From Sphingosinicella sp. BN140058 (GTDB lineage Bacteria; Pseudomonadota; Alphaproteobacteria; Sphingomonadales; Sphingomonadaceae), in NCBI RefSeq assembly GCF_004135585.1, contig NZ_CP035501.1:979001-1043000 (forward strand): 64,000 nucleotides of DNA. The letters run 5' to 3'. The translations under genes and the position numbers were made by a program. Below the pieces are notes generated by a model that was given only the letters and a program-made list of their open reading frames with translations, made no database searches and was not told the DNA's origin. Below, piece after piece: positions 1 to 16,226 of this stretch; the first letter of the stretch is position 1, and each line of letters begins with the position of its first letter.

Positions 1-225
1 CGACGTGTTTTCCGCCTACATGCTGATTTGAGACAGAAAATATCCCGCGGATGCCTCTGACACGATACACTTGATCCAAACAGTCTCCAAAATGGTTATT
101 GTCCGTCGACTCTAGACTTAATCGTTCTTGTTCGATTTTAACGCACATCCTACCATTGCTTCACTTCCGCATCGGGGGGACGACAGGCTGCTTGACGCCG
201 TCTGTCCCAAAGGGAGGGTTGGGGC
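1..225. other. Upstream region of the giant gene, no gene seen
   Basis: I find no credible coding sequence here. The first 180 bases are visibly less GC-rich than the rest of the window, as expected for a promoter region. Just before the giant gene lies a good Shine-Dalgarno run, AAGGGAGGG (about 211-219), spaced 7 bases from the ATG at 226. I could not assign a convincing -35/-10 pair. Confidence 0.4.
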
Positions 226-3200
226 ATGGTTACGTTTTCGCGACAGCCGAGTGGCGTCTATTTGGCTGCAGCGCCGGATCTTGCCAGAATAGCCTTCCTT
301 TTCAAGGATGCACAGCGGCAGGATCCAAGCTTCGACCTGAGCCAAGCGAGCTGGCTTCAGCTCAACGATGCCGGCTATTTCGCTTTCTTCGCGCCCTCCG
401 CAACGCGCGACTGGGACGGCTTCGCCGCCACTGCCCGCGCCGCGTTCGCAGCCAATTACCAGAGCCAGCTCGGCTGGTTCGGCGACGATGCGCCGGTGCT
501 GATCGCACTGGATTGGAGCGGCGGCGCTCCGGTCGTCAATCAGCCGTTCGGCCTCGCCTTTCGCCAGAGCGTCACCCTGACGGTGACCCCGAGCCTGCTC
601 GGCGGCAATCCGACGATCGGCTTCGACGATGCAAGCAGCGCGTTCCGGATCGACAACACCGACGGCACGCCGGACATCTTCGTGCTGACCGCGACCCCGC
701 CGAGCGGGAGCGCAGTGCCTTATTACAGCAGCGGCCAATATGCCGCGTTGCCGGTCACCGGTGATCTCGCCGGCACCCTTGCCTTGCCGTTCAAGCTCAC
801 CACCAACGATCTGAAGCAGTTCGAGGCGGGGATGATGTACTTCACCCCGCCGGTGGGCGGCGGCCTGATCGGCGCGCTCACTTACCCCCTGTTCCGCTCG
901 GCCGGTGCCGCCGATGCGCCATTCACCTTCCTGGTGACGCTGGACGTGCTCGCGCCGCTCGATCCGCTGCGCAGCTTCTTCCAGTTCCAGGATGCGGTGA
1001 TCGGCACCAATTACAGCAGCGTCAACGGCAAGCCCGTCTATTTTCGGCCCGGCAACGGCAGCCTCGCCACGACCGCGCGGTTCGTCTTCGCCGGCCGGCC
1101 GGTGCAATCGACCGGCGACAGCGATTATTATTATCTGACGCCGGCAGGACAATTCGGCGTCTCTCTCTCCGCCGATGAAGCGCCGCTCGATGCCGGCGCA
1201 CAAGATGCCGGAGCGGATGCGGGCACCCGATTGCTGTGCGGCCTCACCGGTACCGAATTTCTCGACGTCGCCACGGCTGGCACCGCGGACCGCCTGGAGT
1301 TCGTCCCGGCGCAACCCGCCTACCGGATCCCGACCGGCAACGACGTTGCCAACGCACCCGCCTATCTGAACGACGCGGCGACGACCTCCTACGCGCGGAT
1401 CGTCACCCAGACCGGGGCGTACGTGTCGCAGCCGCAGAGCGCGCCGCTTTATGCCCAGGCGAGCACGCAATCGGCTCTCCTTGCGGGCGAGGCGCCGCAA
1501 TCGGGCCTCAAGGTCCATCTGCTCGATTTCCTGCCGATCGATTCCTGGACCGCCGCGCAGCAATCGCCGGCGACACCGTTCGTGCCTTATGGCGGCCTTG
1601 CCTTCGCAACCGATCCCAACCTCAAGCTCGGCGACTATCTTGCGATGGAGACCGAGGCGCTGAACCCGAAGCGCTCTCGCGCCTATCTCACCGCCAAGCC
1701 GCAATCGGGCGCGGCGCTGCGCCGGCCGGTGCCGGCGGCCCTGGCCGGCGACGGCACCACGATCGCGATGACGCCGCAGGGAATGCTCGCCGGTATCTCC
1801 GGAACGCCGGCGACCTGGACCCAGCTGCAGATGGCGATCAGCGCCGCCGGCCTGCTGGCCTTCGACGACATGGGCCCGGAGATCGTCCAGGCGGTTCAGC
1901 AAAACCAGATCTTCACCGTGATCAGCGCCGATCCGGGCGCCTTGTTCGGCTTTGCCGACAGCAAGCTGACGATCGGCGACTGGACCTTCGATCTGTCCCC
2001 CGGTGGCCTCGCCGCGCCGGATGGGACCCCGCCGATCTTCCTGATGAAATTCTATCCGGATTCCTCTATCGAGGATCTGGTCGACGATATCCGGCTATGG
2101 TCGAGCCCCGACGTGTTCAACAGCGGCGACTTCACCGCCGAGGACGCGCAAACCTATCTCCAGAAATTGATCGCCGATGCCCGGAACGCGGTGTTCCCGG
2201 ACGGCGCCAGCGAGCCCGATACCGATTCGCTTTATTACAATTTCTACGAAGTCGTCACCGATCCGGCGTTCAGCGGCGTGCTGGCGGTCAATTGCAACAT
2301 GCAGCTGGAGACGCTGCCCGGCGCGATCCGCGCGGTGCTCGGCGGGATGAAGGATCCCGGAATTCCTGGCTTCCGGGTTCACCATGTCGGTGTCGCGATC
2401 AACAACACCGATCCCGATCAATCGACGCCGACGCTGGCGCAAAGCGCGACTTTCGCGCTCGTCGACTATGAGAAAGCGGAGACTGCGTCCGACGCGCTCG
2501 CGATCGACGTCGATTACGGCTTCGAGGTCGAGTTCCTCCGCGCCCTCTTCACCAATTCGGAGCTGCGCAGCTTCGCCTGTCAGCTGAACCTGACGATAAA
2601 CAGCCTGTTCGAAACCGGGGTCAACCAGGATGGCGGCGACACGGCCGCAGCCGGCGAACCGGACGCAGGCAATACGATCACAATCATCGGCTCCTACCAG
2701 GCCCACAGCACCAGCGGCGACGACAGCAATTCCGGAGAGGGGATCTACTCCTTCGTCGCGCAAGGCGAGTTCGTGTACGATTTCACCGACAAGGATGGCG
2801 AGCCGAACAACAAATATCTGAAGTCTATCACCCTCACGAAATTGCAATTCTCGTTCGACGACGAGACCCCGGTTGTGAGCGCCGACGCGAACGACTCGGT
2901 CACCACCCACATCTCGTCGCATTTCGGCATCTGGGGCTATATCGAGTTCAACGAGCTGAAAGTGCTCGACATCTTCTCGTTCGAGAAACTGGAATTCTCG
3001 GACCTCGGCATCAATGTCGGCTTCGATCTCACCATTCCGCAAGCGGGCCAGCCATCCACCGCCAATCTCGCGCTGAGCTTCTCGCCCGGCAATCTCCGGC
3101 TCGATCTCGGCGCGACCGAGAAGAAGGAGGGCGACAACAGCCTGCTCAGCCTGATCCCGTTCAAGCTCAAATCCTTCCTCTACGCGACCGGTGACGGCCA

Positions 3201-6200
3201 GAGCATCGACAGCATCGATTATTACTCGCTGTCGGACATCGCCGGCCTCAAGGAAAACGGGATCACGCTGCAGGATCGGTTCAATTACGCGTTGGTCTTC
3301 GATCTCGATCTCGGCTCATTGGGCGGCCTCGTCGGCTCGCTTTCCGCCTTCCAGTTCAGCATGGTGATCGGCTGGTTGAACCCCGCCCAGGGCGGCGGCC
3401 TCGCCTTCGGCGTGCAACTGCCCCAGGTCGACGGCAAGCTCGAGATCAAGATCCAGGGCGTGCTGACCATCTCGATTGAGCAATTCACCCTGCTCTACGC
3501 CACCGATTCCGATCCGAAGATGCTGGTACTCGGCCTGCAGGATTGCTTCATCGACGTGCTCGGCACCCGGGTGCCGCCGTCGGGAACGATCAGCATCGGC
3601 CTGTTCGCGCCGACCGAGGGCGCAGACCAGATCGGCTGGATCGGCGCCTACAACAAGGGCGAGGACGGCGGCGGCGGCGGCGACACTGGCGGTGAGGGCG
3701 GGGACGGCGGCGGCGGCGAAGGCGGCAACGACACCGGCACTCTTCTTGCCGCACGTCCGCAAAGCCGGCGCGCGGTTCAGATGTTCGAAGGCGCAGCGAA
3801 TGCGGACGAAGGCGGCGTCTTCGAGCTCAATTATGTCGGCCTGGGCCAGCGCGTCGGCCCCGATCCGACCGATCCGCCGACCAGTTACGCCGAGTTCCTA
3901 GACTACATGCAGACGACCTTCTGGGACAATCTGAAGGACAAGGAGTTCGCCGAAATCTATCACCCGAATGGACGGTGGATTTTCGTCGCCGACTTCACTC
4001 TGCTCAAGCTGATCCAGATCGGCACCGTCTTCTACGACGTCACGCCATTCTACGCTCTGCAGATCTCGCTGATCGGCGGCGCGGGCAAGGGTTTCTCGTT
4101 CGAGATTACCTACACCAAGGTCACCGACGAGATCGGCCTGTACGCGATCACCATCGCCCTGCCGGACACGCTGCGCACCTTCCAGGTCGGCGTCGCCTCG
4201 GTGACGCTGCCGACGATCAGCATCAACATCTACACCAACGGCAATTGGAAGGTCGATCTCGGCTTCCCCAACGGCGACGACTGGAGCGTCTGCTTCCGCG
4301 TCCAGGCCCAGGCCGGGCCTGTGCCGGTCACCGGATCGGGCGGCTTCTACATCGCAAGCCTCAGTTCGGCGACCGATCCCGACGTGTTCAAGGGCACGTA
4401 CGAATCGATCGCCGCCTTCGGCTTCGCGCTTCGGCTTGGCGTCGGCAAGGACTTCGTCGCCGGACCGCTCAAGGCCGGAGTCAGCGTCACCTTCTTCGGC
4501 ATCATCCAGGGCGCCGCCGGCTATCTCACCAGCGGCGGCGACATCTTCCGCACGCCGGATGCGCTGTCGCTCCAGGGACAGATCGGGATCATCGGCGAGC
4601 TCTACGGCTCCGTCGACTTCGTCATCATCAAGGCCAGCGTCAACGTGCGTCTGCAGGCCAGCATCGGCCTGATCCTGACCTACGAGCCAAAGGCGCCGGG
4701 CGGCGGCGACGGCTCGATCCTGCTCTACATCGAAGCGAGCGTCAGCGTCAGCGTCAAGGTCGAGATCAATCTGTTCCTGTTCAAGGTGACGATCAGCTTC
4801 AGCTTCAAGGCGTCGTTCCGCTTCGAATGGCAACTCGCGGGATCGAGCACTGCCAAGACAGCCCTGCTGGCAAGCTACCGCGCCGCGCGCAGGCTGGCGG
4901 CGCCGCAGCCGATCGGCCTCTGCCCCGGCCTGCCGGCGGCCCTGCCGTTGCTCTATCTGCCGGAAGTGACGGTGGTCTTCGCCAACGCCGCCGATGCCGG
5001 CCTGCCCTGGCTCGCGGTTTCGCTCGGCATCGAATATGATCCGGCGCCGCCGCAGAATCCGCCTTATTCGGCGTTCAAGCCGTTCGAGGCGGTGACCACC
5101 CAGCTCGCCACCTTCGCATTGATGCATGCGCTCGAGCTCGACAGCTATGACTCGATCGTCACGCTGGAAGACCCGGCGCCCCAGAAACCGGGCCTGCGCT
5201 CGATCGACAGCGATCCCGATCTGCTGACCGGCTGGATCGGCTATGGCGACCTGCTCGCCCAGCTCGGCAATTTCGCCGGCACGCTCGCGCAGCCCGGCGG
5301 TTCCACCCAGGCGACGGCATTCCCGATGCCGCCCTTCCTGCAGCTCGCGACCGACGGCCGCAGTGTCGGCGCCGATCCGGACGAGCTCTCCTATGTCTTC
5401 CAGTCGAAGAACCCGGTGCCGGCCAGCTACCTGCTGGAGGTCGATGCCTATTTCAATCAGCTGTTCGTCGATCAAACGCCGACTCCGCCGACGATCGGCG
5501 ACCCGACCGCCGAAACGCCGCTGCCGGTCGAGATCTTCCTCGACTATTTCAAGGGGCTGATCCGCGGCGCCGTCCATCAATTGCTGGTGACGATGCAGAA
5601 TCAGGGGCTGACCGAGGCCAAGCTCGACAGCCTGTTCAGCGCCGCCGCCGGGGCGCCGACCCCGCAATCGCAATCCCTGTTCCAGCAGCTCGCCGGGCAG
5701 ATGAGCAGCAGCATGCGCGCCGGCATTCGCCTGCCGAAGACGTCCGGCCTGACGCTTCCGGGCGGCCTGCCCGTGCAGGACACCAACCCGCTTTTCGCCT
5801 TGCTGTGGCAGGAGTTCCCGATCGGCGACTTCGCGAACGGCGCCTCCTACACGATCATCCTTTCCAATCCCTCGCTCGGATCCAGCTCCACCCCGGATGC
5901 CAGCAAGAGCTGGGCCCCCAATGCTGCGCCCTTCACGCTGACCAAGCCGAGCATATCCGCTTATTACGGCCTCACGGCCGGAGCGGTGACCCAACCCGGC
6001 GCGCCCGTGCCGATCGACTTCACCCAATTGGGGCCGCAATCGTTCGCGTTCGAGAGTGCGATCGTCTGGACGCCGGCCTCGGGCGCCGCGCTCAGCCTGC
6101 AGCCGTTCCCGCCGAGCCTGCTGCGGCTGCAGCTCGCGGAGGGTAAGGTGCCGATCGCCGCCGTCGTCGCGTCCCGCGCCGCCGACGGCCCGTATCTGCC

Positions 6201-9200
6201 CGACGGCACACCCGTGCCGGCCGGCGATGTCGCGTTCGTGACGAGTATCGGCCTCACCGTGCGCCAGATACCCGGGGCCGACGGCAAGCCGCTCGACGAC
6301 GTGTTCGCGCTGTCCGGCGCCAGCCAGTCGGACGAGGCTCTGCTCGGCCGGATCCTCGACGATCTGCGCGCCGGCGACCGCCCGATCGCCTCGATCGAAA
6401 TCCTGTATCAGCAGGCGGCGGGCGCCGCAGGCCTGTCTTCGGCGACCTGCGATCCCAATTCGGTGTTCGTCCTGCGCACCAACACCAGTTCGGTGTCACA
6501 GCCGCCGCAAGTGCAGGCAGTCCGCGAGGCAGCGCCGCTGCCGACGGGGGTGGCGGTCGGGGCCACCGCGGATCTCACCGCCGACGGCGGTTACGGCTTC
6601 CTGCAGATCGTCCAGCAGGCGACCGTGACCAACGCGTCCGGTTATTATCTGCGGTACCAGGACAGCGCCGGGGCGTCGCTGCCCGGGCCCTTGTTCGTCA
6701 AGGGCGTCGGCCAGATCACCCTGCTGCTGCGCTACACTGCGGCGGCGGAGGCGAACAGCCTCGCCTCGCCATTGGCCATCGCGCCCTATCACAATGCGGT
6801 GGTGCTGGCGAACACGCAGCCCGGCCTGGTTTATTATGCGGAAGCAACCGATCCCTCCCTGGCGATCCGCTATGCAGCGACCTCCGCAGGTACGTTCGGC
6901 GTGACCCTGTCCCGCTCCGATGCAGTGACCCAGCTCAGCGCGACGGCATCGATCGCAGCGCGCGCCAACATCGCCGAGGCCGCCCCGATCTCGCGCAGCG
7001 ACGCGATCGCCGCGGCACGGGCGTCCGGCCTCTGCGAGGATGACGAGATCCATGCGCTGCTCGGGACGCTGGGTGCTGCCCCGGCAGCCCTGAACGCCCT
7101 CTATAGCCTGGTCACCTACCGGATCGAGAAGACCGACGGCTTCATCCAGAGCTATCTGTCGGCACCGATCCAGCCGCAGCGGCCCAACGAAGGCGATCCC
7201 GACAGCGACTACCGGATCATCGCTCCCCTCTACAATGTCGCCGAAGCCAATCAGCAGTCCGGCGTCAGCGATCGCTACGCCAGCATCGCCAAGCCGTTCA
7301 CCTTGTCCTTCTTCACCAACGATGCATTCGGCAACCAAATGCCGACGCCGGGCAGCTATTCGGACACCAACCTGTATTTCGATCCGATCATCCCCCTCGA
7401 TCAGTGGACAGGGATCGTCTCCCGCTACGATTTCGCGGGCACCGGCGGGCCTGCGGCGAACCAAGTCTCGCTGACCCTGGAGCCGACGTGCACGGCGTTC
7501 ACCGACATGTCGGATGACGAGCGCGCGGCAGCCCGTGCCCACTTCCTGACCATCGGCGACCAGATCACCGGACCGGGCGTGTCCTTCTACGTCGAGACCA
7601 GTCTGGCGATCGACAAGGACGGCAATCTCGTGCCGTTCCGCCTCGGCACCGACGACAGCGCGAAGATCGTCGCCATGGTAGCGGGCCTCGCCGCCTGGCT
7701 GGCGCCGAAATCGACCGCGTCCTTCCCCGATCCGGTGCGGATCACGCTGACCGTGACAGGAAGCGGAGACTTGCCGCCGCTCTTCCCCCTGGCAATGCTG
7801 TTCGGCATCCAGCGCGATCCCGACCTGATCTCACCCTACATCAAGGACGGCGGCACGATCCTGCTGCCGTCGGCGCAGAATGTCGCGACCAGTCTGGCAC
7901 CCGAAACGGGAGAGTCCGGCAACCTTTCCGCCTTTGCGGCCGATTTCGTCGTCGCCTTTCCGGCGCAGAAGCTCGCCGTCGGGCTGACCGGCACCGACGC
8001 CGCTCAGCCGCCGGCATTGCAGTCGAGCACCTTTCGCGCCCGCAACCGGCTGCGGAGCCAGGGCTTGGCGACCGACGGTTCGACCGGCGCCGGCCCGACC
8101 GGGGCGCAGACCCTGTGGGCAGCGCAGGCGGCGATGCTCGACATCGGGATCGGCACCGCCAAGGACAGCGGCCCGCGCTATCTGTCGCCCAAGCCTCTCG
8201 ACAATGTGCTCAACACGGCCAACGTGCCGCTACCGACGCTCGCCTCGACGCTCCCGCAGCTGCCGGCGCAGCGGCTGTTCGTCGACATCGATCTAGATCA
8301 GTATAACCGTGCCTTCTTCCAGACCGTCGACACCATCCTCGGCCCGGCCTCGGCCGCTCAGGCGTTCGAGCAGGCGCGCGCGGCCTATGACGCGATCGCC
8401 CGCGGCCGGGAGACCCTCGCCCACAAATATTCGACGTACGAAGTCGACTGGCTGTTCGACCCGACCTCGCCGTTCAGCGGCAGCGATGACCAGCGGATCG
8501 TCGCCCGCGACGTGTTCGAGCAGCAGATGCGCGCTTCGCTGATGACGGCCCATGCGGTCGACACGATCGTCCAATATGATGTGGCCTGGAACCAGTCGGT
8601 GTCCCCGGCAGCGGACCAGATGATCGAATTGTTCGGCCAGGTCGAAGCGATCATCGTCGGCCGATACGCCTGGGCAGGCGCGGAGCTGACCGCGACGAGC
8701 CCGTCCGCATCCTCGCTGTCGGTCGGCGACCGGGTGCTGATGGTGTTCACCCCCGATACCGGCACCACCGCGCCTCCGGACGGCATCTACACGGTGGCCA
8801 CTGCCGATGCTGGGCAATTCACCGTCGCGACGCAGAACGGCACCGGCAAGGGCGGTTTCTCGGCGACCCGGCAGAATTCCGGTCTGTCGACCGCGCACGT
8901 GGCGATCAGCACCAGCGGCACCAGCCCGCTCACCTTCCTCTACGGCACGCCTGATGTCGCGGACCGCGCGATCGTTACGATGGATCTGCGGTTCAACATC
9001 ACCAATCTCCAATATTTCCTCGCCCCGCCCGGCGCGGAGGGTGAGGCCCGGCCGTCGCTGTGGCTGCAGCTCATCGATCCTTATGCGCCGGGCCAGCCGC
9101 CGCATATCGGGCCGGACGGCGTGCTGACCGACATTCCGGTGGTGTTCCGCCAGTATCCGACTCCGCCGACCATGGTGCGGCAGGGCTGGAGCGTGCCGGA

Positions 9201-10518
9201 CGGCACGACCGTCAGCGCCAATCCGATCGCTGCGCATTCGCAGTGGGATTATTCCTACGTCTACCAGGCGTTCCTGGCCGCGCAGGACCGGATCAACAGC
9301 GCGATCACCTACAATACGGATCTCAGCGTCGCCGCGCCTCCGTCCAACCGGGCGGTGGGCGCCGGCGGCGGTATCACGGTCTTCGACCTGTTCGGCGCGC
9401 TGGCGCGGGCAAACGCGGTGATCGATGCGATCCGCCCGGTGCTGCAGGTCCCCACCGATCCCAATTGGAAAGACGCGGTGCAGGCCCTCGCCGACTCCGT
9501 CGTCGAGGTCACGGCAAATTCTACGTGGAACCCGTTGCCGAGCGCGCTTGCGACCGCGCCCCTCACCCAGGTCACCGACAGCTATGTCATCACCGACGCA
9601 GGCGAAGGCACCACCCAGACGATCATGCTGACCTGGCCGGCCGCGCAGGGGGAATCGAGCTTCGCCGGCGTGAGCCTGTCCCTGTCCGCGCTAGATCCCG
9701 CCTCGGCAACGCTCCAGCCCTATCCGGGCCAGACCTCGACAACGTCGTCGACCGCTCTCCAGGTCGTGGTGCCCAACGCGCCGCTCGGCCGGCTCGGCGT
9801 CGTGCAGCAGGTGACCGCCAACGATCTCAACGTGCTCGCCGCCGAGAACGCGCTGGCGGCGGTTCAGGTGGAACGCAACCTGATCAGCCTCGAAGGCGCC
9901 GACCAGCAGGAATGGGAGGTCGTGCCCAAGTTCATCTACAAGACAGCCCAGGTGCGGCCGAGCCAGCCCGTGACACCGTTCATCGACGTGGTGGCGCCGA
10001 TCGATGTCGCCACCTTGCCGAACCTCGGCACCGGGCCATCCTGCCCGTCGGCCACGGCGGCGAGCCTGTGCCAGCGAGTCTACACCATCCTGGCAAACCT
10101 GCTCGCTGATCCGGAGCAATCGACGGCGCTTCTCGAGGCCTATCAGGCGGCGGGCGCGACCGCTGGAGCCTCCCGCCGGATGAAGATGAGCTGTGCTCTC
10201 CGCTTCCCGCTGGCGGCCGTCAGCGGCACCGACTTCGACGCCACGTCGCCGAGCCCGCTCGTCCCCGTGGTGATGGCGCGCAGCTTCGACATCGACGGCG
10301 GCGATCCGGCACAGCTCGGCGATTTCGCGTCGCTGTTCGCGCAGGCGATCGATGCCTGGGCGACGCAGAATGCGATCATCTACGGCAGCCAGTCGGAGCC
10401 GCCGGGCGCCAAGCTCGTGTTCGATGCCACGCTTTACGCAGCGCTGAGCGGGGTCGACACGCCGGTGCTCCGCTTCACCAGCCTCGAGCTCGCCCTCACC
10501 GACATCGACGCCGTCTGA
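226..10518 (+). CDS. Giant protein of unknown function (3430 aa)
   Basis: A single uninterrupted frame of 3430 residues, started at an ATG behind a strong AAGGGAGGG ribosome-binding site. I do not recognise the family. No signal peptide or membrane segment is apparent, so the product may be cytosolic or exported by a non-Sec route. The sequence is beta-rich. Residues about 880-1140 and 1230-1545 have long alternating hydrophobic/polar strands, vaguely like the large DUF6603-type proteins (a weak guess). A glycine-rich linker, mostly G, D and E, lies at about residues 1147-1172 (nt 3664-3741). The C-terminal half is Ala/Pro/Thr-rich with no catalytic motif I can name. Composition matches neighbouring genes, so recent transfer is not indicated. 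Three paralogous small genes follow on the same strand and are probably co-transcribed. It could be a structural, toxin-like or adhesive protein. The coding call is secure; the function is unknown. Confidence 0.9.
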   Translation: MVTFSRQPSGVYLAAAPDLARIAFLFKDAQRQDPSFDLSQASWLQLNDAGYFAFFAPSATRDWDGFAATARAAFAANYQSQLGWFGDDAPVLIALDWSGGAPVVNQPFGLAFRQSVTLTVTPSLLGGNPTIGFDDASSAFRIDNTDGTPDIFVLTATPPSGSAVPYYSSGQYAALPVTGDLAGTLALPFKLTTNDLKQFEAGMMYFTPPVGGGLIGALTYPLFRSAGAADAPFTFLVTLDVLAPLDPLRSFFQFQDAVIGTNYSSVNGKPVYFRPGNGSLATTARFVFAGRPVQSTGDSDYYYLTPAGQFGVSLSADEAPLDAGAQDAGADAGTRLLCGLTGTEFLDVATAGTADRLEFVPAQPAYRIPTGNDVANAPAYLNDAATTSYARIVTQTGAYVSQPQSAPLYAQASTQSALLAGEAPQSGLKVHLLDFLPIDSWTAAQQSPATPFVPYGGLAFATDPNLKLGDYLAMETEALNPKRSRAYLTAKPQSGAALRRPVPAALAGDGTTIAMTPQGMLAGISGTPATWTQLQMAISAAGLLAFDDMGPEIVQAVQQNQIFTVISADPGALFGFADSKLTIGDWTFDLSPGGLAAPDGTPPIFLMKFYPDSSIEDLVDDIRLWSSPDVFNSGDFTAEDAQTYLQKLIADARNAVFPDGASEPDTDSLYYNFYEVVTDPAFSGVLAVNCNMQLETLPGAIRAVLGGMKDPGIPGFRVHHVGVAINNTDPDQSTPTLAQSATFALVDYEKAETASDALAIDVDYGFEVEFLRALFTNSELRSFACQLNLTINSLFETGVNQDGGDTAAAGEPDAGNTITIIGSYQAHSTSGDDSNSGEGIYSFVAQGEFVYDFTDKDGEPNNKYLKSITLTKLQFSFDDETPVVSADANDSVTTHISSHFGIWGYIEFNELKVLDIFSFEKLEFSDLGINVGFDLTIPQAGQPSTANLALSFSPGNLRLDLGATEKKEGDNSLLSLIPFKLKSFLYATGDGQSIDSIDYYSLSDIAGLKENGITLQDRFNYALVFDLDLGSLGGLVGSLSAFQFSMVIGWLNPAQGGGLAFGVQLPQVDGKLEIKIQGVLTISIEQFTLLYATDSDPKMLVLGLQDCFIDVLGTRVPPSGTISIGLFAPTEGADQIGWIGAYNKGEDGGGGGDTGGEGGDGGGGEGGNDTGTLLAARPQSRRAVQMFEGAANADEGGVFELNYVGLGQRVGPDPTDPPTSYAEFLDYMQTTFWDNLKDKEFAEIYHPNGRWIFVADFTLLKLIQIGTVFYDVTPFYALQISLIGGAGKGFSFEITYTKVTDEIGLYAITIALPDTLRTFQVGVASVTLPTISINIYTNGNWKVDLGFPNGDDWSVCFRVQAQAGPVPVTGSGGFYIASLSSATDPDVFKGTYESIAAFGFALRLGVGKDFVAGPLKAGVSVTFFGIIQGAAGYLTSGGDIFRTPDALSLQGQIGIIGELYGSVDFVIIKASVNVRLQASIGLILTYEPKAPGGGDGSILLYIEASVSVSVKVEINLFLFKVTISFSFKASFRFEWQLAGSSTAKTALLASYRAARRLAAPQPIGLCPGLPAALPLLYLPEVTVVFANAADAGLPWLAVSLGIEYDPAPPQNPPYSAFKPFEAVTTQLATFALMHALELDSYDSIVTLEDPAPQKPGLRSIDSDPDLLTGWIGYGDLLAQLGNFAGTLAQPGGSTQATAFPMPPFLQLATDGRSVGADPDELSYVFQSKNPVPASYLLEVDAYFNQLFVDQTPTPPTIGDPTAETPLPVEIFLDYFKGLIRGAVHQLLVTMQNQGLTEAKLDSLFSAAAGAPTPQSQSLFQQLAGQMSSSMRAGIRLPKTSGLTLPGGLPVQDTNPLFALLWQEFPIGDFANGASYTIILSNPSLGSSSTPDASKSWAPNAAPFTLTKPSISAYYGLTAGAVTQPGAPVPIDFTQLGPQSFAFESAIVWTPASGAALSLQPFPPSLLRLQLAEGKVPIAAVVASRAADGPYLPDGTPVPAGDVAFVTSIGLTVRQIPGADGKPLDDVFALSGASQSDEALLGRILDDLRAGDRPIASIEILYQQAAGAAGLSSATCDPNSVFVLRTNTSSVSQPPQVQAVREAAPLPTGVAVGATADLTADGGYGFLQIVQQATVTNASGYYLRYQDSAGASLPGPLFVKGVGQITLLLRYTAAAEANSLASPLAIAPYHNAVVLANTQPGLVYYAEATDPSLAIRYAATSAGTFGVTLSRSDAVTQLSATASIAARANIAEAAPISRSDAIAAARASGLCEDDEIHALLGTLGAAPAALNALYSLVTYRIEKTDGFIQSYLSAPIQPQRPNEGDPDSDYRIIAPLYNVAEANQQSGVSDRYASIAKPFTLSFFTNDAFGNQMPTPGSYSDTNLYFDPIIPLDQWTGIVSRYDFAGTGGPAANQVSLTLEPTCTAFTDMSDDERAAARAHFLTIGDQITGPGVSFYVETSLAIDKDGNLVPFRLGTDDSAKIVAMVAGLAAWLAPKSTASFPDPVRITLTVTGSGDLPPLFPLAMLFGIQRDPDLISPYIKDGGTILLPSAQNVATSLAPETGESGNLSAFAADFVVAFPAQKLAVGLTGTDAAQPPALQSSTFRARNRLRSQGLATDGSTGAGPTGAQTLWAAQAAMLDIGIGTAKDSGPRYLSPKPLDNVLNTANVPLPTLASTLPQLPAQRLFVDIDLDQYNRAFFQTVDTILGPASAAQAFEQARAAYDAIARGRETLAHKYSTYEVDWLFDPTSPFSGSDDQRIVARDVFEQQMRASLMTAHAVDTIVQYDVAWNQSVSPAADQMIELFGQVEAIIVGRYAWAGAELTATSPSASSLSVGDRVLMVFTPDTGTTAPPDGIYTVATADAGQFTVATQNGTGKGGFSATRQNSGLSTAHVAISTSGTSPLTFLYGTPDVADRAIVTMDLRFNITNLQYFLAPPGAEGEARPSLWLQLIDPYAPGQPPHIGPDGVLTDIPVVFRQYPTPPTMVRQGWSVPDGTTVSANPIAAHSQWDYSYVYQAFLAAQDRINSAITYNTDLSVAAPPSNRAVGAGGGITVFDLFGALARANAVIDAIRPVLQVPTDPNWKDAVQALADSVVEVTANSTWNPLPSALATAPLTQVTDSYVITDAGEGTTQTIMLTWPAAQGESSFAGVSLSLSALDPASATLQPYPGQTSTTSSTALQVVVPNAPLGRLGVVQQVTANDLNVLAAENALAAVQVERNLISLEGADQQEWEVVPKFIYKTAQVRPSQPVTPFIDVVAPIDVATLPNLGTGPSCPSATAASLCQRVYTILANLLADPEQSTALLEAYQAAGATAGASRRMKMSCALRFPLAAVSGTDFDATSPSPLVPVVMARSFDIDGGDPAQLGDFASLFAQAIDAWATQNAIIYGSQSEPPGAKLVFDATLYAALSGVDTPVLRFTSLELALTDIDAV

Positions 10519-10608
10519 TCAACTGCAAGAGGAGCATGAATGGGGATTGGGAACTGACGATCGAAGACCGCGACCTTCCACAAGGATCCTTCTTTTCGGA
10601 GACATCAC

Positions 10609-11322
10609 ATGAACGACTATTCTTCGGACACGCTGAGCACTTTGGGTGCGCTGGAGCCGGTTGGTGCGACCACCACCTGGGACGGCTCGCCGACCACCAT
10701 CCAGCCGCTGAGCGACACCTTGCTGATGCCGCAGACTCCTAACGGATCGACGGTTTTCGCCTATCAGAACAAGGCGACGCAGAACAATGACGGCTCGCTC
10801 TCGCTGACCTCGGGCGGCGGCCAGCCGCAGATACTCGACGTGCCAGCCCTTCTCCAGCAGCCGACCATCCTGGTCAGCAACTGGCAGGCGAACAATCTTA
10901 CCGTCAACAATATCAGCCAGAATACGGCCACGCCGATCTGGGTCGAAGCATTCGGCCCCGGCCTGCCGGGCCAGACGCCGATCACGGTCACCAACGGCAC
11001 TCCGTTCAAGCTCAGCCCGCAGCCGAGCGCGACCTCGGTCGCGACCGGCGTCACCGCGCCGCGCAACATGCTGCTGCGCATGCAGTCCAACACCGGCGAC
11101 CTTGCAATCATCGCGGTCATCGGCGGCCCGAGCACGGGTGGCAGCAATGCCTATGTGTTCGCGCTCAACTCGTCCACTCCCGGCGAGGGCCAGGGCTATA
11201 CCAAGGCGGTGTCGGGTAATTCCTACGACTTCCAGTTCAACTGGAGCACGTCGGTGATCTACATCGCCAACATGTCTCCCTCGACCTCGGCGGCCGTCAC
11301 CCTGAACCTGATCGGTCTCTGA
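10609..11322 (+). CDS. MPQTPNGS-family protein, paralog 1 (237 aa)
   Basis: The first of three tandem paralogs behind the giant gene, with the ATG following a TTCGGAGAC ribosome-binding site. I do not recognise the family. There is no signal peptide and no membrane segment. Features shared with the next two genes, in order: a Trp-Asp/Asn-Gly near the N-terminus, the exact octapeptide MPQTPNGS, a Gly-rich turn before a Val-Pro-Ala-Leu stretch, N-W-Q-A-N-N, an AFGPG turn, IGGP, NAYV-(F/I)-A, and a C-terminal tract of short hydrophobic strands (YDFQFNWS, then VIYIANMSP). The pattern suggests an all-beta fold. The aromatic-rich, conserved polar loops could form a binding site, but this is inference. 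It starts 90 bases after the giant gene, which fits one operon. Confidence 0.85.
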   Translation: MNDYSSDTLSTLGALEPVGATTTWDGSPTTIQPLSDTLLMPQTPNGSTVFAYQNKATQNNDGSLSLTSGGGQPQILDVPALLQQPTILVSNWQANNLTVNNISQNTATPIWVEAFGPGLPGQTPITVTNGTPFKLSPQPSATSVATGVTAPRNMLLRMQSNTGDLAIIAVIGGPSTGGSNAYVFALNSSTPGEGQGYTKAVSGNSYDFQFNWSTSVIYIANMSPSTSAAVTLNLIGL

Positions 11323-11332
11323 TTGCCGCAAC

Positions 11333-11380
11333 GCCGGGCCCGGATCGATCCGGGCCCGGCTCCGTGCGGTCGGACCGCAC
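11333..11380. other. Two adjacent intercistronic hairpins
   Basis: Between paralogs 1 and 2 lies a perfect 28-base palindrome (11333-11360, arms GCCGGGCCCGGATC and its complement). A second hairpin, GTGCGGT-CGG-ACCGCAC (11364-11380), follows at once. Neither is followed by a U-tract, so they are more likely mRNA-stabilising or attenuating structures than simple terminators. They separate paralog 1 from paralog 2 and could set different expression levels. Confidence 0.6.
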
Positions 11381-11402
11381 TGTCCCGATTGGAGCAACCG
11401 CG

Positions 11403-12191
11403 ATGGCGACAGGTGAGGACGACGGACCAGGCCCCTACGCAGGCAAGGCATCGAAGCGCAGCCACCACGGACAGCGCCGCGGGAGCGATCGATGCGACGA
11501 CGACGCGCTCACCGTGCTGGGTACGGAGAATTGGAACGGTGCCCGCATCGTCTTGCAGCAGGGCCAATATGCGAGCATGCCGCAGACCCCGAACGGGTCG
11601 CTGATCCTCAGCTATCTCAACCAGGCGAAGCAGAACAACCAGGGCGAGCTGGCCCTGAGCTCGGGCGGCGGCACGCCGCAATTCCTGCCGGTGCCGGCGC
11701 TGATCCAGATGTTGAGCCTGACCGTGAACAATTGGCAGGCGAACAACATCAAGGTGACCAACACCAGCCTTGCGCCGGCGACCCCTATCATGGTCCAGGC
11801 ATTCGGGCCCGGCATCGTCGGCGCGGTGCCCGGTCCGCTGCCGCTCAATCAGGCGATCACCCTCGGGGTCACCCAGGCCGCGCAAGGGACCTCGCAGCCT
11901 CGATCGATGCTGCTGCGATTCGTCGCATCGACGGGCAACCTCAGCATCGTCGGTATCGTCGGCGGGCCGCCGAGCCAGCAGGGCGACACCAACGCCTATG
12001 TGATCGCCATCAATTCTCCCACAGGGGAGACGGGCCCGGACACCGGCAACCCGCCGCCGCCAGGTTATTATGCGACGACCGGTTCGAACCGATACGATTT
12101 CCAGTTCAACTGGAGCAGCGCGACCGTCTATGTCGTCAACCTGTCGCCGATTGCCGCTGCGACAATGTCGGCGACGATGATAGCGCTATAG
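11403..12191 (+). CDS. MPQTPNGS-family protein, paralog 2 (262 aa)
   Basis: The second tandem paralog. I start it at the ATG at 11403, which has GGAG six bases upstream. An in-frame ATG at 11364 lies inside the intercistronic hairpins and is less likely. The core is the same as in its neighbours: W-N-G, MPQTPNGS, the SGGG turn, VPAL, N-W-Q-A-N-N, AFGPG, GGPP, NAYVIAINS, YDFQFNWS, and a closing run of hydrophobic strands. The N-terminal 40 residues are unrelated to paralog 1 and rich in charged and His/Arg residues. A PPPPG insertion lies before the last strands. Function is unknown. Tandem duplication with conserved core motifs and divergent tails suggests related but specialised roles. Confidence 0.85.
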   Translation: MATGEDDGPGPYAGKASKRSHHGQRRGSDRCDDDALTVLGTENWNGARIVLQQGQYASMPQTPNGSLILSYLNQAKQNNQGELALSSGGGTPQFLPVPALIQMLSLTVNNWQANNIKVTNTSLAPATPIMVQAFGPGIVGAVPGPLPLNQAITLGVTQAAQGTSQPRSMLLRFVASTGNLSIVGIVGGPPSQQGDTNAYVIAINSPTGETGPDTGNPPPPGYYATTGSNRYDFQFNWSSATVYVVNLSPIAAATMSATMIAL

Positions 12192-12209
12192 CATCGAAGG
12201 CGGTTCGAC

Positions 12210-13001
12210 ATGCCGTCACGCCGGGACGTATTGACGCACCTCGTCTGCGAAACGGCGGGCGAAGGCGCGGCCTCGAACCCGGCTTATGCGCTTCTCGGCC
12301 GGCCGGAGAGCACCGCGCCCTGGGACGGCGACCCGGTGACCCTCCAACAATATGACAGCGTGTCGATGCCGCAGACGCCGAACGGATCGATGATGCTGGC
12401 CTATATCAACCGATCGCTGCGCAATAGCGAGGGCAAGCTCGCTTGGACCAGCGGATCGAGCGCGCCGACCATCCTCGTCGCCCCGGCCCTCGCCCTTGCC
12501 CCGACCGTGCTGGTCGATAATTGGCAAGGCAACAATCTTACCCTCACCAACATCAGCGTCGGTTCCGATACGCCGATCGGCGTCGAGGCATTCGGGCCTG
12601 GCATCGGCCCCACTCCGGAAACGCTGCCGATCGGACCTCCGGGCGTTCAGATCGCCGCGGGCCAGGCCGCGCAAGGGGCCACGACCGGCGGCTACATGCA
12701 ATTGGGCTTCCAGCAGGAGGACGGCAATCCGGCGATGTTCGGCTTCATCGGCGGCCCTGCCGGCAGCGACGGCAACAACGCCTACGTGATCGCGATCAAC
12801 TCCCCGCTTGGTAACAGCGGACCGGGAACGCCCAACCCGGCGCCCCCGGGCTATTTCGCGACATCGGCCGGCAACGCGTGGTCCTACGAGCTGAAGTGGC
12901 CGAGTTCGGTGCTTTACGTCGCCAACTTCGGCGCAGCGACCCTCGTCCCGCCAAGCATGATCGCGGCGACCATGCCGACGATCACGCTGATCCGTTTGTG
13001 A
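12210..13001 (+). CDS. MPQTPNGS-family protein, paralog 3 (263 aa)
   Basis: The third tandem paralog, only 18 bases after paralog 2, with GAAGGCGG upstream of its ATG, so it is almost certainly co-transcribed. It keeps W-D-G, MPQTPNGS, N-W-Q-G-N-N, EAFGPG, IGGP, NAYVIAINSP and a PAPPGY segment close to paralog 2. It is the most divergent member: the SGGG turn becomes SGSS, and the YDFQFNWS strand becomes WSYELKWPSS. It resembles paralog 2 more than paralog 1. No signal peptide or known catalytic motif is visible. Function unknown. Confidence 0.85.
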   Translation: MPSRRDVLTHLVCETAGEGAASNPAYALLGRPESTAPWDGDPVTLQQYDSVSMPQTPNGSMMLAYINRSLRNSEGKLAWTSGSSAPTILVAPALALAPTVLVDNWQGNNLTLTNISVGSDTPIGVEAFGPGIGPTPETLPIGPPGVQIAAGQAAQGATTGGYMQLGFQQEDGNPAMFGFIGGPAGSDGNNAYVIAINSPLGNSGPGTPNPAPPGYFATSAGNAWSYELKWPSSVLYVANFGAATLVPPSMIAATMPTITLIRL

Positions 13002-13176
13002 GGCGGCGCGCAGCCCATCGCAGCCGTGCCACGACTCATCTGTGCCCGATGCGGAGATGAGCCTGGATGACGGAGCAACCTCCGCATCGAGCCGTTTCTT
13101 GTCCGTCAATGCGGCCGGAACGCGGGCCTAGCGCCCGCCGTCTGCCGCGAACCTGAACCACGGATGGAGTGAAGAC

Positions 13177-13611
13177 ATGAAAGCTGCTGCTTTCACGATG
13201 GCGCTGCTGCTCAGCGGTGCCGCCCTGGCCCAGACCAATGGCACCGACACAAGCGCGACCACGAACGCGGACACCAGCTGGCAGACCGGGGCGACGGCCG
13301 CAGACGCTGCGCCGACGGGCGACATGAGCATGCAGACCGCGCCGATGGAAACCAGCGTAGCCGCAGCCGGCCAGATGGTGGAACCGCACAATGCGAACCC
13401 GGAACGGGACGCCCGCGGCATTCGCGTGATTTCGGCGGCCGCTATGGTGCCGGCGGGCTATAACGGCACCAGCACCGGTACCGCGATGGGCGGCCCGCTG
13501 CTCGACCCCGCCACCGGCCAAACGGTCGGCGATCAGCAATCCTATCCCGCCTGCTCGTCTGCCGTAACCGACAAATGCGTGCAGACGTACGAACGCGGCC
13601 GCAAATCCTGA
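13177..13611 (+). CDS. Small secreted hypothetical protein (144 aa)
   Basis: The N-terminus is a clear Sec signal peptide (MKAAAF, a hydrophobic stretch, cleavage after Ala-Leu-Ala). A Thr/Ala/Met-rich low-complexity region follows. The C-terminal segment contains a Pro-Ala-Cys...Asp-Lys-Cys-Val-Gln-Thr-Tyr-Glu-Arg-Gly pattern, where the two cysteines could form a disulfide. I believe similar C-terminal tails occur in conserved sphingomonad proteins, but I cannot name a family. It is probably periplasmic. It lies 175 bases after the last MPQTPNGS paralog and ends at a strong hairpin, so it may be the last gene of that unit or stand alone. Confidence 0.75.
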   Translation: MKAAAFTMALLLSGAALAQTNGTDTSATTNADTSWQTGATAADAAPTGDMSMQTAPMETSVAAAGQMVEPHNANPERDARGIRVISAAAMVPAGYNGTSTGTAMGGPLLDPATGQTVGDQQSYPACSSAVTDKCVQTYERGRKS

Positions 13612-13628
13612 TCGACCTCTAAAGAAGA

Positions 13629-13669
13629 GCCTGCTCCGCCGGACTTTCCAGCGGAGCAGGCCTTTCGCT
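13629..13669 (+). terminator. Rho-independent-like terminator
   Basis: An 11-bp perfect stem, GCCTGCTCCGC / GCGGAGCAGGC, with an 11-base loop, is followed by CTTTCGCTC. It lies just downstream of the small secreted protein gene and ends the upstream transcription unit. The U-tract is short. Confidence 0.75.
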
Positions 13670-13695
13670 CCCGTCACGGCACGCCACCTCCCGCA

Positions 13696-13713
13696 CCGTA
13701 ACAATCCGGTCAT
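13696..13713 (+). promoter_or_regulatory. Possible PHO-box-like site before the PhoX-type gene
   Basis: CCGTAAC-AATC-CGGTCAT has the 7-4-7 layout of a PhoB binding site. The second half matches CTGTCAT at six of seven positions; the first half is weak (four of seven). Its place 33-50 bases before a phosphatase-type gene is what makes it worth listing. Confidence 0.25.
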
Positions 13714-13745
13714 GCAGCCACGCCAGAGGCTAGGTAGGAGGCTGC

Positions 13746-15116
13746 ATGCAGATTGCCCGTCGTGACTTCGCCCGTCTTGGCCTCGCTTCCCTGGCATTTA
13801 CCGGCCTCGCCCGCGCCGCCGTGCGGGACGAGGGGTATGAGAGCGAGGTCGCCGGCTACGGTCCGCTCGTCCCCGATCGTGCCGGTCTGCTCGACCTGCC
13901 GAAGGGCTTTTCCTACCGGGTGATTTCGTCGGCCGGCGAGAGGATGGACGACGGCTTCGTCACGCCCGACAAATTCGACGGAATGGCCTGTTTCGCGCTC
14001 GACGGCGGCAAGGTCGCCCTCGTCCGCAATCACGAGCTCAGTCCCGGCGACACAGCCCTCGGGCCGACAGGCGGGCTGGCGCGGCTCGAAGCGGCGCTCG
14101 CCGCCAGACCGTTCTTCGGGCGCGATGCCGACGGTCGGCCGCTGCCGGGCGGCACCTCGACGATCGTCTACGATCCGAAACGGGGGAAGCGCAGCACTGT
14201 CCATCTCAGCCTGGCGGGAACCGCGGTCAATTGCGCCGGCGGAGCGACGCCGTGGGGAAGCTGGCTCAGCTGCGAGGAAACCAACCTCAAGGCGCCCGAG
14301 GTCGACCGCACGCATGGCTGGGTGTTCGAAGTGCCGGCCGATGCACGCGCGCTCGTGGATCCGGTGCCGCTCACCGGCCTCGGCCGGTACCGCCATGAGG
14401 CGGCGGCGGTCGATCCGCGCACCGGCATCGTCTATCTTACCGAGGATCGCGAAGACGGGCTCTTCTACCGCTTCCTCCCGAACCGGAAAGGCGCCCTGGT
14501 CGAGGGCGGTCGCCTGCAGGCGCTGGCCTTTGCGGACGCACCGCAAGACAGCCGTAACTGGCAGAGCAAGCTCTTCGCGCCGCGCAGCAGCCGCCCGGTC
14601 CGCTGGCTCGATCTCGAAGAAACCGACAGCCCGAAGGACGATCTGCGCCAACGCGGCGCCGCCGCCGGCGCGGCAATCTTCGCACGTGGTGAAGGCATCC
14701 ATCTCGGCCGCGGCGAGCTGTTCTTCACCTGCACTTCGGGCGGCGCGGCCAGGATCGGCCAGATCATGTGCTACCGGCCCAGCGAGCACGAGGGCGGACC
14801 GGGCGAACGCAGCGCGCCCGGAATGCTGCAGCTCTTCCTCGAATCCACCCGCTCGACGGTGATGGATTATGGCGACAATCTCACCGTCTCGCCCTGGAAC
14901 CACCTGATCGTGTGCGAGGATCGAGACAGCAGCGACCGCAATTACCTGCGTGGCGTCACCCCCGACGGCCAGGTCTACACGATCGCCCGGCTGCTTGCCG
15001 AAACCGAGCTTGCCGGCGCCTGCTTCGCACCGGACGGACGCACCCTGTTCGTCAATGCCTATCGTCCCGGTAAAACGCTGGCGATCACCGGCCCCTGGGA
15101 GACGGTGCGCGCCTGA
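13746..15116 (+). CDS. PhoX-family (DUF839) Tat-exported phosphatase-like protein (456 aa)
   Basis: Resembles the DUF839/PhoX family: calcium-dependent, often iron-binding beta-propeller enzymes that release phosphate from organic esters outside the cytoplasm. The N-terminus has a twin-arginine-type signal (ARRDFARLGLASLAF, then Ala-Arg-Ala). Conserved family features include the VRNHE segment near residue 95, GTSTI, WGSWLSCEE near residue 175, RHEAAAVDP, YLTEDR, and LTVSPWNHLIVCEDR near the end. The ATG at 13746 follows TAGGAGG with good spacing. It converges on the phytase gene, which supports a shared role in phosphorus supply. Family assignment is fairly sure; phosphatase activity is inferred, because some DUF839 members are uncharacterised. 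Confidence 0.8.
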   Translation: MQIARRDFARLGLASLAFTGLARAAVRDEGYESEVAGYGPLVPDRAGLLDLPKGFSYRVISSAGERMDDGFVTPDKFDGMACFALDGGKVALVRNHELSPGDTALGPTGGLARLEAALAARPFFGRDADGRPLPGGTSTIVYDPKRGKRSTVHLSLAGTAVNCAGGATPWGSWLSCEETNLKAPEVDRTHGWVFEVPADARALVDPVPLTGLGRYRHEAAAVDPRTGIVYLTEDREDGLFYRFLPNRKGALVEGGRLQALAFADAPQDSRNWQSKLFAPRSSRPVRWLDLEETDSPKDDLRQRGAAAGAAIFARGEGIHLGRGELFFTCTSGGAARIGQIMCYRPSEHEGGPGERSAPGMLQLFLESTRSTVMDYGDNLTVSPWNHLIVCEDRDSSDRNYLRGVTPDGQVYTIARLLAETELAGACFAPDGRTLFVNAYRPGKTLAITGPWETVRA

Positions 15117-15137: not shown

Positions 15138-16226
15138 TCAGTCGGGGAGGCCGAGTGCCCTGGCGATCGCCGACCAGGGCACCAGCTTGAAATTCTGCGC
15201 GGCGGGAGCGTTGGCGCCATCCTGGGCGACGAACAGGCCGCCGGGGTAAGCAGGGCCGAAATCGCCCAGAGCGAGATCGATGCCGTCCGTTTCTTCGGTC
15301 GATCCGAACGTCCCCGGCGCAATCCGGAAACGTCCGACATAGGAATCATCCTCGAGCCGGTAGAGCGTGTAGGCATTGTCGCCCTGGCTCGAGACGACGA
15401 CATAGCCGCCACGGTCGCCGATCGGCGCCAGCGCCACGCCTTCGGCATCGGCGACGATGTTGCGACCGTCCGCAGCGGCGATCCTGACCAGGCTGGTCGA
15501 TCCACCGGCGGCGGCGTCGAAGCGCCAGAGGCCGACATCCTCCTCCGCGACATAGAGACGCCCGGTGCGCTCGTCGGCGGCGCAGCCTTCCGACTGCGTG
15601 CCGAGCTTCATCGATCGAACGATCGTCGCAGTCGGCGCCGCGCCTTGAAGATCGAGCCGGACCTGGTTGATCGTGCCGTCCTTCAGCACCGCGAAGGCAT
15701 AGAGGCCGGCCGCATCGCGGAACAGGCAAATGCCATAGGCTTCGCCCGCTCCCGCCTCGACCTTGCCGAGCGAGGTCAGCCTGGCCGTCGCGGGATCGAG
15801 CGAGAAGAGCGCGATCCGCGCCGCAGCCGGATCATTGCGGTCACTCGCCGCAACGAGAATGCCACGGCTGCCGCCGATCGTCACGTCGGCACGAAGATCG
15901 ACGTTGTTGACGAGACCGGCATCGCTGAAGTCGCGGACCTTGCCGTCGAGCCCGTAGACATAGACTCCCGCCTTCTTGTCGGTGCCGACGATCAGGCTGG
16001 CGGCGGGATCTGCCGGATTGCGCCAGATGGCGGGATCGTCGGCGGCATCGGCGGCGGCGGTGCCGACCGGTGCGGTCTCCCCGGCGGCCTGCACCGTCAC
16101 CGCCGGCGCGGCATTGGCAATGCGCTGCGCAATCGGAACTTCCGCAGGTGAAGCGGCACATCCGCCCGCCAGCAGCGCTCCAAGCGCCGTCACGGAACTG
16201 AAACAAGATCGAAAAGAGGCGGTCAC
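15138..16226 (-). CDS. Beta-propeller 3-phytase, lipoprotein (362 aa)
   Basis: Beta-propeller phytases release phosphate from inositol hexakisphosphate using calcium. Family hallmarks are present: D-A-A-D-D-P-A-I-W near residue 60, then GTDKKAGVYVYGLDG, VDLR, a Y-G-I-C-L segment, EGCAADERTGRLYVAEED, ADAEGVAL, and QGDNAYTLYR near the C-terminus. The N-terminus has a signal peptide ending in LLAGGC, a good lipobox, so the enzyme is probably anchored to a membrane. It is divergent from the TonB receptor gene and convergent with the PhoX-type gene. Length is usual for the family. Confidence 0.9.
   Translation of the reverse strand: MTASFRSCFSSVTALGALLAGGCAASPAEVPIAQRIANAAPAVTVQAAGETAPVGTAAADAADDPAIWRNPADPAASLIVGTDKKAGVYVYGLDGKVRDFSDAGLVNNVDLRADVTIGGSRGILVAASDRNDPAAARIALFSLDPATARLTSLGKVEAGAGEAYGICLFRDAAGLYAFAVLKDGTINQVRLDLQGAAPTATIVRSMKLGTQSEGCAADERTGRLYVAEEDVGLWRFDAAAGGSTSLVRIAAADGRNIVADAEGVALAPIGDRGGYVVVSSQGDNAYTLYRLEDDSYVGRFRIAPGTFGSTEETDGIDLALGDFGPAYPGGLFVAQDGANAPAAQNFKLVPWSAIARALGLPD

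What the first reader, a model, noticed from the sequence alone, without database searches (positions are those of the whole stretch)
226..13001. Giant 3430-aa orphan protein followed by three tandem paralogs
One of the longest genes expected in such a genome is followed on the same strand, with only short gaps, by three duplicated genes that I cannot place in any family. None has a recognised enzyme, toxin or secretion motif. A giant plus a small paralog set is the layout of self-contained assemblies: a scaffold or shell with subunits, a large effector with immunity or binding partners, or a large carrier with client proteins. The giant has beta-rich repeats and a Gly/Asp/Glu linker (about residues 1147-1172), and the paralogs look like compact beta-sandwich proteins. 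That combination is suggestive but unproven.
Basis: partly seen in the sequence, partly recalled or inferred. Interest (0 to 1): 0.75.

Follow-up and report, generated by a model that had tools for sequence, protein, structure and literature searches.

The report
Giant protein with three constant partners
A 3,430-residue bacterial protein of unknown function appears to travel between distant bacteria as one unit with three small sister proteins, and it looks like a fused, enzyme-free version of a much wider two-part giant system.

Summary
A 3,430-aa ORF is followed on the same strand by three paralogs. The giant is not an orphan: relatives of similar length at 34-73% identity occur in several phyla. 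In 12 of 12 close loci whose contig continues past the giant, paralogs follow directly: three in 11, four in one. In Mesorhizobium the giant is in 4 of 146 genomes and three full paralogs are in the same 4. Trees indicate transfer between phyla.

A wider superfamily has the giant as two genes in 54 of 65 loci. The window's version has no enzyme there. AlphaFold gives paralog 1 two tandem beta-sandwiches (pLDDT 92) and the giant's middle long amphipathic strands resembling large beta-barrels. No Pfam, NCBIfam, PHROG or PADLOC family matches the giant or the paralogs tested. Function is unproven; my best guess is a beta-shell scaffold with three binding satellites acting between organisms.

The parts
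226..10518 (+). giant gene, 3430 aa, predicted 361 kDa, pI 4.3, no signal peptide seen by eye
   Evidence: homologs; no Pfam/NCBIfam/PHROG family
226..3663 (+). N-half, residues 1-1146: corresponds to a separate protein, mostly about 1,000-1,300 aa, in 54 of 65 loci of the wide superfamily
3664..3804 (+). low-confidence Gly/Asp/Glu-rich joint, residues 1147-1193: where the giant is two genes elsewhere
   Evidence: pLDDT under 50 at residues 1148-1190; split-gene ends map here
3805..4935 (+). core, residues 1194-1570, the part found in most distant loci; six long amphipathic antiparallel strands (1394-1538)
4936..10518 (+). C-terminal part, residues 1571-3430, conserved to near the end; LysM domains occur in some distant relatives, none found in the window
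10609..11322 (+). paralog 1, 237 aa, two tandem beta-sandwich domains (about 20-118 and 120-237)
11333..11360 (+). strong hairpin between paralogs 1 and 2 (12-bp stem), function unknown
   Evidence: 61 nt folded: -42.2 kcal/mol, z -5.6; not listed as a T-tailed terminator
11364..12191 (+). paralog 2; true start uncertain, homology from about 11523
12210..13001 (+). paralog 3, 263 aa

Best explanation
The four genes are one horizontally transferred unit. Shown: in the close family the giant and (almost always) three paralogs occur together and are inherited together. Shown: the giant corresponds to two proteins that are separate in most loci of the wider superfamily, joined here by a linker that the model leaves unstructured. 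Predicted: strands from the end of the first half and the start of the second lie together in a long-stranded amphipathic beta-sheet or barrel-like shell. Inferred: the two halves form a large shell or scaffold; in the wider superfamily the enzyme gene at the joint (MBL-like or DNase I-like) is a cargo or partner; the window's lineage has a sealed joint and no enzyme there. Inferred: the three paralogs are non-catalytic satellites that bind the giant in fixed number and supply surface or ligand binding. Most likely role, inferred from sporadic transfer between mostly environmental bacteria and from the HINT, LamG, fn3 and LysM domains of the wider systems: an assembly used on or against other organisms, exported or released by an unknown route.
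For: Linkage: paralogs directly downstream in 12 of 12 close loci (three in 11, four in L018); a whole-genome search finds paralogs in 12 of 32 genomes, all with a giant of at least 43% identity (best segment): three in 10, four in one, two matches in one fragmented assembly. Mesorhizobium: giant in 4 of 146 genomes, three full paralogs in the same 4 (1/C(146,4) = 5.5e-8, not corrected for relatedness). Transfer: Sphingomonas giants fall in two places, the window beside Pseudolabrys (97/95) and two others beside a Thermoanaerobaculia sequence (100/99); identities of giant core and paralogs correlate (r 0.89, 0.90, 0.85 over 66 pairs of related loci). Two-part correspondence: 54 of 65 wide loci have N and C matches on separate ORFs, 2 on one ORF, 9 show the C half only; N matches end at model positions 541-557 in 52 of 54, C matches begin at 570-579 in 44 of 54, i.e. 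about residues 1142-1175 and 1191-1200. Enzymes at the joint: MBL-like in 15 and DNase I-like in 12 of the 54; DNase I by profile E 2.8e-9 with conserved motifs. Structure. Wide-system domains: HINT, LamG, fn3, LysM.
Against: Nothing shows that the proteins bind each other, or where they are. No signal peptide by eye and no known secretion domain. The giant model has pTM 0.61 and covers only residues 600-1600; amphipathic long strands match many barrels. The close family has no enzyme, so a role inferred from the wide systems may not carry over; half of the split loci (27 of 54) have neither enzyme type at the joint. No immunity gene is recognised. A paralog (P0030) on an 8.4-Mb Bradyrhizobium contig has no giant in the list, and 9 of the 16 distinct longest-contig lengths of at least 15 kb for paralogs other than the window's own have no match among giants, so paralogs without giants are not excluded.
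Confidence: 0.4

Rival explanations
1. Lipid-handling protein: the long amphipathic strands form a hydrophobic groove or barrel that carries or bridges lipids, as in LptD, ApoB or bridge-like lipid transfer proteins, with the paralogs as adaptors.
Confidence: 0.2
2. Outer-membrane beta-barrel channel or adhesin with periplasmic or surface partners.
Against: No signal peptide by eye; distant relatives occur in monoderm lineages (8 Bacillota and 2 Actinomycetota loci; plasmids of Lysinibacillus, Paenibacillus and Embleya).
Confidence: 0.1
3. Intracellular defence (anti-phage) system spread by transfer.
For: Sporadic; MBL- and DNase-like enzymes in the wide systems; a weak PADLOC match of one MBL-like protein to LmuA (E 2.4e-6).
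Against: The giant, paralogs 1 and 3, one DNase-like protein, one N-half and one HINT protein give no PADLOC match; HINT/LamG/LysM domains are, to my knowledge, atypical for it.
Confidence: 0.12
4. Phage-tail-derived particle component (eCIS- or GTA-like).
For: No signal peptide by eye; LysM in 6 and Phage_BR0599 in 1 of 14 giants scanned (12 C-giants of wide loci plus L016 and L023); BR0599 also in P0166.
Against: No PHROG family; no phage record matches; one viral contig only; I recognised no tail, sheath or baseplate set in the neighbour clusters (judged from printed sequence starts, not by profile).
Confidence: 0.08
5. Adjacency without function: the giant and the small genes merely sit side by side.
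For: Operon transcription was not tested; promoter- and terminator-like sites are no more frequent than in shuffles.
Against: Conserved order and presence in 12 of 12 loci over three phyla, co-distribution in Mesorhizobium.
Confidence: 0.03

Closest known systems
Wide superfamily of split giants (no description found; seen here in Mucilaginibacter, Pseudomonas, Xanthomonas, Lachnospiraceae, Nostoc and others)
   Same: Homologous over much of the giant, with the same order of N-half, core and C-part and a similar C-terminal end
   Different: Two genes in 54 of 65 loci; an enzyme or small protein often lies between them; LysM in some C-giants; none of the 20 distant genomes checked (17 wide, plus L016, L020, L023) has this paralog family
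Polymorphic toxin systems (PMC3482391, passages read)
   Same: In the wide systems: different enzymes at a fixed position, HINT, LamG and LysM domains, sporadic distribution
   Different: No recognised secretion domain or immunity gene; the enzyme gene is at a central joint; the window's version has none
SID1/SIDT extracellular region and ColG collagen-binding (PPC-like) domains
   Different: No sequence match in the PDB; 6-8% identity in these rows; fold resemblance only
Outer-membrane porins (CymA, OccK/OprD), LptD, ApoB-100
   Same: Long amphipathic antiparallel strands
   Different: No signal peptide by eye, monoderm relatives, low TM-scores

Membership tests
Polymorphic toxin system | toxin domain in the polypeptide or operon | tested here: not met
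   no toxin or enzyme family in giant or paralogs
Polymorphic toxin system | neighbouring immunity gene | tested here: inconclusive
   no family match for the paralogs; an unknown immunity family cannot be excluded
Polymorphic toxin system | secretion or trafficking domain | tested here: not met
   no Pfam/NCBIfam domain in the giant; HINT/LamG/LysM only in wide relatives
Rhs/YD-repeat or Tc-type cocoon | RHS/YD repeats | tested here: not met
   Pfam gives 0 families at E<=1 for the giant
Outer-membrane beta-barrel protein | signal peptide and diderm host range | tested here: not met
   N-terminus read by eye, no predictor run; Bacillota and Actinomycetota relatives
Outer-membrane beta-barrel protein | closed transmembrane barrel | tested here: inconclusive
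   barrel-like matches, model pTM 0.61
Bridge-like lipid transfer protein | hydrophobic inner face of a beta groove | not testable with these tools
   model coordinates not available; sequence alternation only
Anti-phage defence system | match to a known defence family | tested here: not met
   PADLOC: none for giant and paralogs 1 and 3; paralog 2 not scanned there
eCIS / phage tail | sheath, tube and baseplate genes | tested here: inconclusive
   no PHROG match and none recognised in neighbour clusters, but no dedicated profile search was run

The most novel reading that the evidence does not exclude
A new class of mobile giant protein machine, found here in at least ten bacterial phyla: two large beta-rich halves that jointly build one shell, with an interchangeable hydrolase often encoded exactly at the joint, and small satellite proteins. 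The window holds a derived, sealed form with a fixed set of three satellites.
Probability: 0.35. Interest if true: 0.85.

Novelty: categorically new. Interest (0 to 1): 0.62.

Why it matters
A protein of 3,400 residues that keeps about half of its sequence between phyla, and moves together with a fixed small partner set, must be under strong functional constraint, yet no family model or paper found here describes it. The three-partner rule and the fused joint give direct, cheap tests (pull-down, deletion in a soil Mesorhizobium). The wider superfamily, with different hydrolases at one fixed joint, may be an unrecognised kind of delivery, surface or defence machine.

Tried and rejected
Family libraries: Pfam, NCBIfam, PHROGs and PADLOC gave nothing usable for the giant or the paralogs tested. 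PDB by sequence: two chance-level rows for the giant (E 0.72, 0.81) and none for the paralogs. Rfam: 0 matches in 1-14000. Phage records: no match; IMG/VR: 1 distant locus; BFVD: only weak matches for the giant slice. A link of the upstream small proteins of L016/L020 to the paralogs was weak (hhalign E 0.0037, probability 8.9): a lead, not a result. Integration signals: one tRNA-Thr about 4 kb upstream, GC content of the unit (0.63-0.68) within the range of the window (0.63-0.71), the two flanking genes on different contigs in the same-genus genome G015; no conclusion. Literature: eight searches ran and found no description; listings were seen, and passages of PMC12419801 and PMC3482391, none of which describes this family. 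bioRxiv and most subscription papers are not held. Chance adjacency was rejected.

Mended on checking: identity range (34-73%, not 39-73%), MBL members matching Pfam (three of four), LysM count wording, number of literature searches, and the joint counts (recounted).

Full report
What is in the window. The four ORFs are as described: 226-10518, 10609-11322, 11364-12191 and 12210-13001, all on the + strand. The window lies at 979001-1043000 of a 5.72-Mb contig of a 6.07-Mb genome. The next likely gene upstream is on the other strand (L005 16319-17833); downstream follow a 144-aa ORF and a PhoX-family gene. The start of paralog 2 is uncertain: homology begins near 11523, well inside the ORF. A strong hairpin lies between paralogs 1 and 2.

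Not an orphan. Searching 5.8 billion proteins gave 116 homologs of the giant, many of about 3,300-3,520 aa at 34-73% identity, with names pointing to Sphingomonas, Mesorhizobium, Pseudolabrys, Labrys, Minicystis, Sulfidibacter, Terracidiphilus, Longimicrobium and others (only the 2529 candidates sharing most words were scored). An alignment of 19 has 51% mean column identity with many invariant positions. The paralog search gave 67 homologs, two of them the window's own. No Pfam, NCBIfam or PHROG family matched, nor did any of 63 paralogs scanned against Pfam beyond weak scores (best E 0.014).

A fixed unit. The genome-contig scan confirmed 83 loci and kept 80, L009-L088. In L009-L023 the giant runs through the joint as one ORF, at 32-61% identity (L022 is cut by its contig end). 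With the window, 12 close loci have a contig that runs past the giant: window, L009-L015, L017, L018, L019 and L021. All 12 have paralogs directly downstream on the same strand: three in 11, four in L018 (L019's contig ends right after its third; spacing; L017 has a 1.1-kb gap between the first two). Not counted among these 12: L022, whose contig ends in the giant, though its genome has two paralog matches on another contig; L023, whose contig ends just after the giant and whose genome has none; and L016 and L020 (36-37% identity), which have none anywhere but carry one and two other small genes upstream with only a weak resemblance to the paralogs. Searched whole, 12 of 32 genomes have the paralogs and 20 (L016, L020, L023 and 17 distant loci) have none. 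In Mesorhizobium, 4 of 146 genomes have the giant and the same 4 have three full paralogs; a fifth (G999) has only a C-terminal remnant, 30-44 residues to most queries. In broader samples the paralogs are in 1 of 60 relatives, 1 of 385 class genomes and 1 of 397 order genomes around Mesorhizobium, each time the reference genome itself; the giant's slice is in 4 of 385 class genomes, three of them distant matches in another family. In a Mesorhizobium without the unit (L118), sequence matching L010 starts at L010:22832, about 170 bp past the third paralog, at 95% identity over 5.9 kb: there the right edge of the unit is close to its last gene. The left edge was not found.

Against strict linkage: P0030 lies on an 8.4-Mb Bradyrhizobium contig for which one search lists no giant. 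Of 16 distinct longest-contig lengths of at least 15 kb among paralog hits other than the window's own, 7 recur among giant hits and 9 do not. Contig length is only a proxy and one search scored a limited candidate set, so this is unresolved.

Transfer. In the core tree the window pairs with Pseudolabrys (97/95) inside a group with Mesorhizobium (100/100), while two other Sphingomonas join a Thermoanaerobaculia sequence (100/99). The paralog tree shows position-by-position orthology inside the window's group and largely inside a second, mainly acidobacterial one, but the Minicystis copies cluster together and the positions do not unite across groups: three copies were kept or re-created, not simply inherited as three ancestral clades. 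Giant-core and paralog identities correlate (r 0.89, 0.90, 0.85 over 66 pairs); pairs are not independent.

The joint. In 54 of 65 wide loci (L024-L088) the N and C matches lie on separate ORFs, in 2 on one ORF, and in 9 only the C half was found. N matches end at model positions 541-557 in 52 of 54 and C matches begin at 570-579 in 44 of 54, that is, about residues 1142-1175 and 1191-1200 of the giant. In 15 of the 54 an MBL-like gene lies between the halves and in 12 a DNase I-like gene; the other 27 have small proteins, other ORFs or nothing there. The MBL-like cluster covers 20 loci in all; of four members scanned, three touch Pfam Lactamase_B (one above the cut-off) and one, L088, does not. 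A profile of 9 DNase-like proteins matches DNase I at E 2.8e-9 and keeps motifs that I recall as typical of the endonuclease/exonuclease/phosphatase fold. Upstream genes of some wide loci carry HINT, LamG and fn3. LysM is in 6 of 14 giants scanned (12 wide C-giants plus L016 and L023), and in those of L026 and L063 but not L088. The phyla include Bacillota and Actinomycetota.

Mechanism. Shown: unit, transfer, two-part correspondence, folds at the stated confidence. Inferred: a shell or scaffold with three satellites, used between organisms. I hold the functional part at about 0.4; rivals are listed. Novelty is judged as classification: no known family was matched and no paper was found in the searches named.

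Noticed in passing
L024-L088: A wide superfamily of split giants with an MBL-like or DNase I-like gene at the joint in 27 of 54 split loci, in at least ten phyla including Lachnospiraceae of the Bacillota; no description found.
   Followed up: partly
L037:7146-8645; N-termini of C-giants in L042, L052, L083: At or near the same joint some loci carry a region with a 'GHQ/GHY' motif that looks enzyme-like (read by eye; the L037 protein has no Pfam match).
   Followed up: no
L029 6062-9082, and upstream genes of L030, L036, L037, L046: Small proteins of about 215-300 aa, with two similar halves by eye, occur in tandem sets (three in L029) beside split giants; not found by the paralog profile; some have signal-peptide-like starts by eye.
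   Followed up: partly
window 11333-11360: 12-bp-stem hairpin between paralogs 1 and 2, z -5.6, no T tail.
   Followed up: partly
L005 16319-17833 (upstream neighbour): The gene just upstream has a second copy 99% identical at 441219-442730 of the same contig.
   Followed up: no
L117 9257-9388: A short remnant of a paralog C-terminus in a Mesorhizobium genome without the giant, possible decay of the unit.
   Followed up: partly
L013 20245-22549: The three Minicystis paralogs cluster together rather than with their positional counterparts elsewhere: gene conversion or separate triplication.
   Followed up: no
window 13746-15116 and 15138-16226: PhoX-family gene (Pfam E 3e-78) next to the unit, with an opposite-strand ORF after it that reads like a phytase by eye; no sign that either belongs to the unit.
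   Followed up: no
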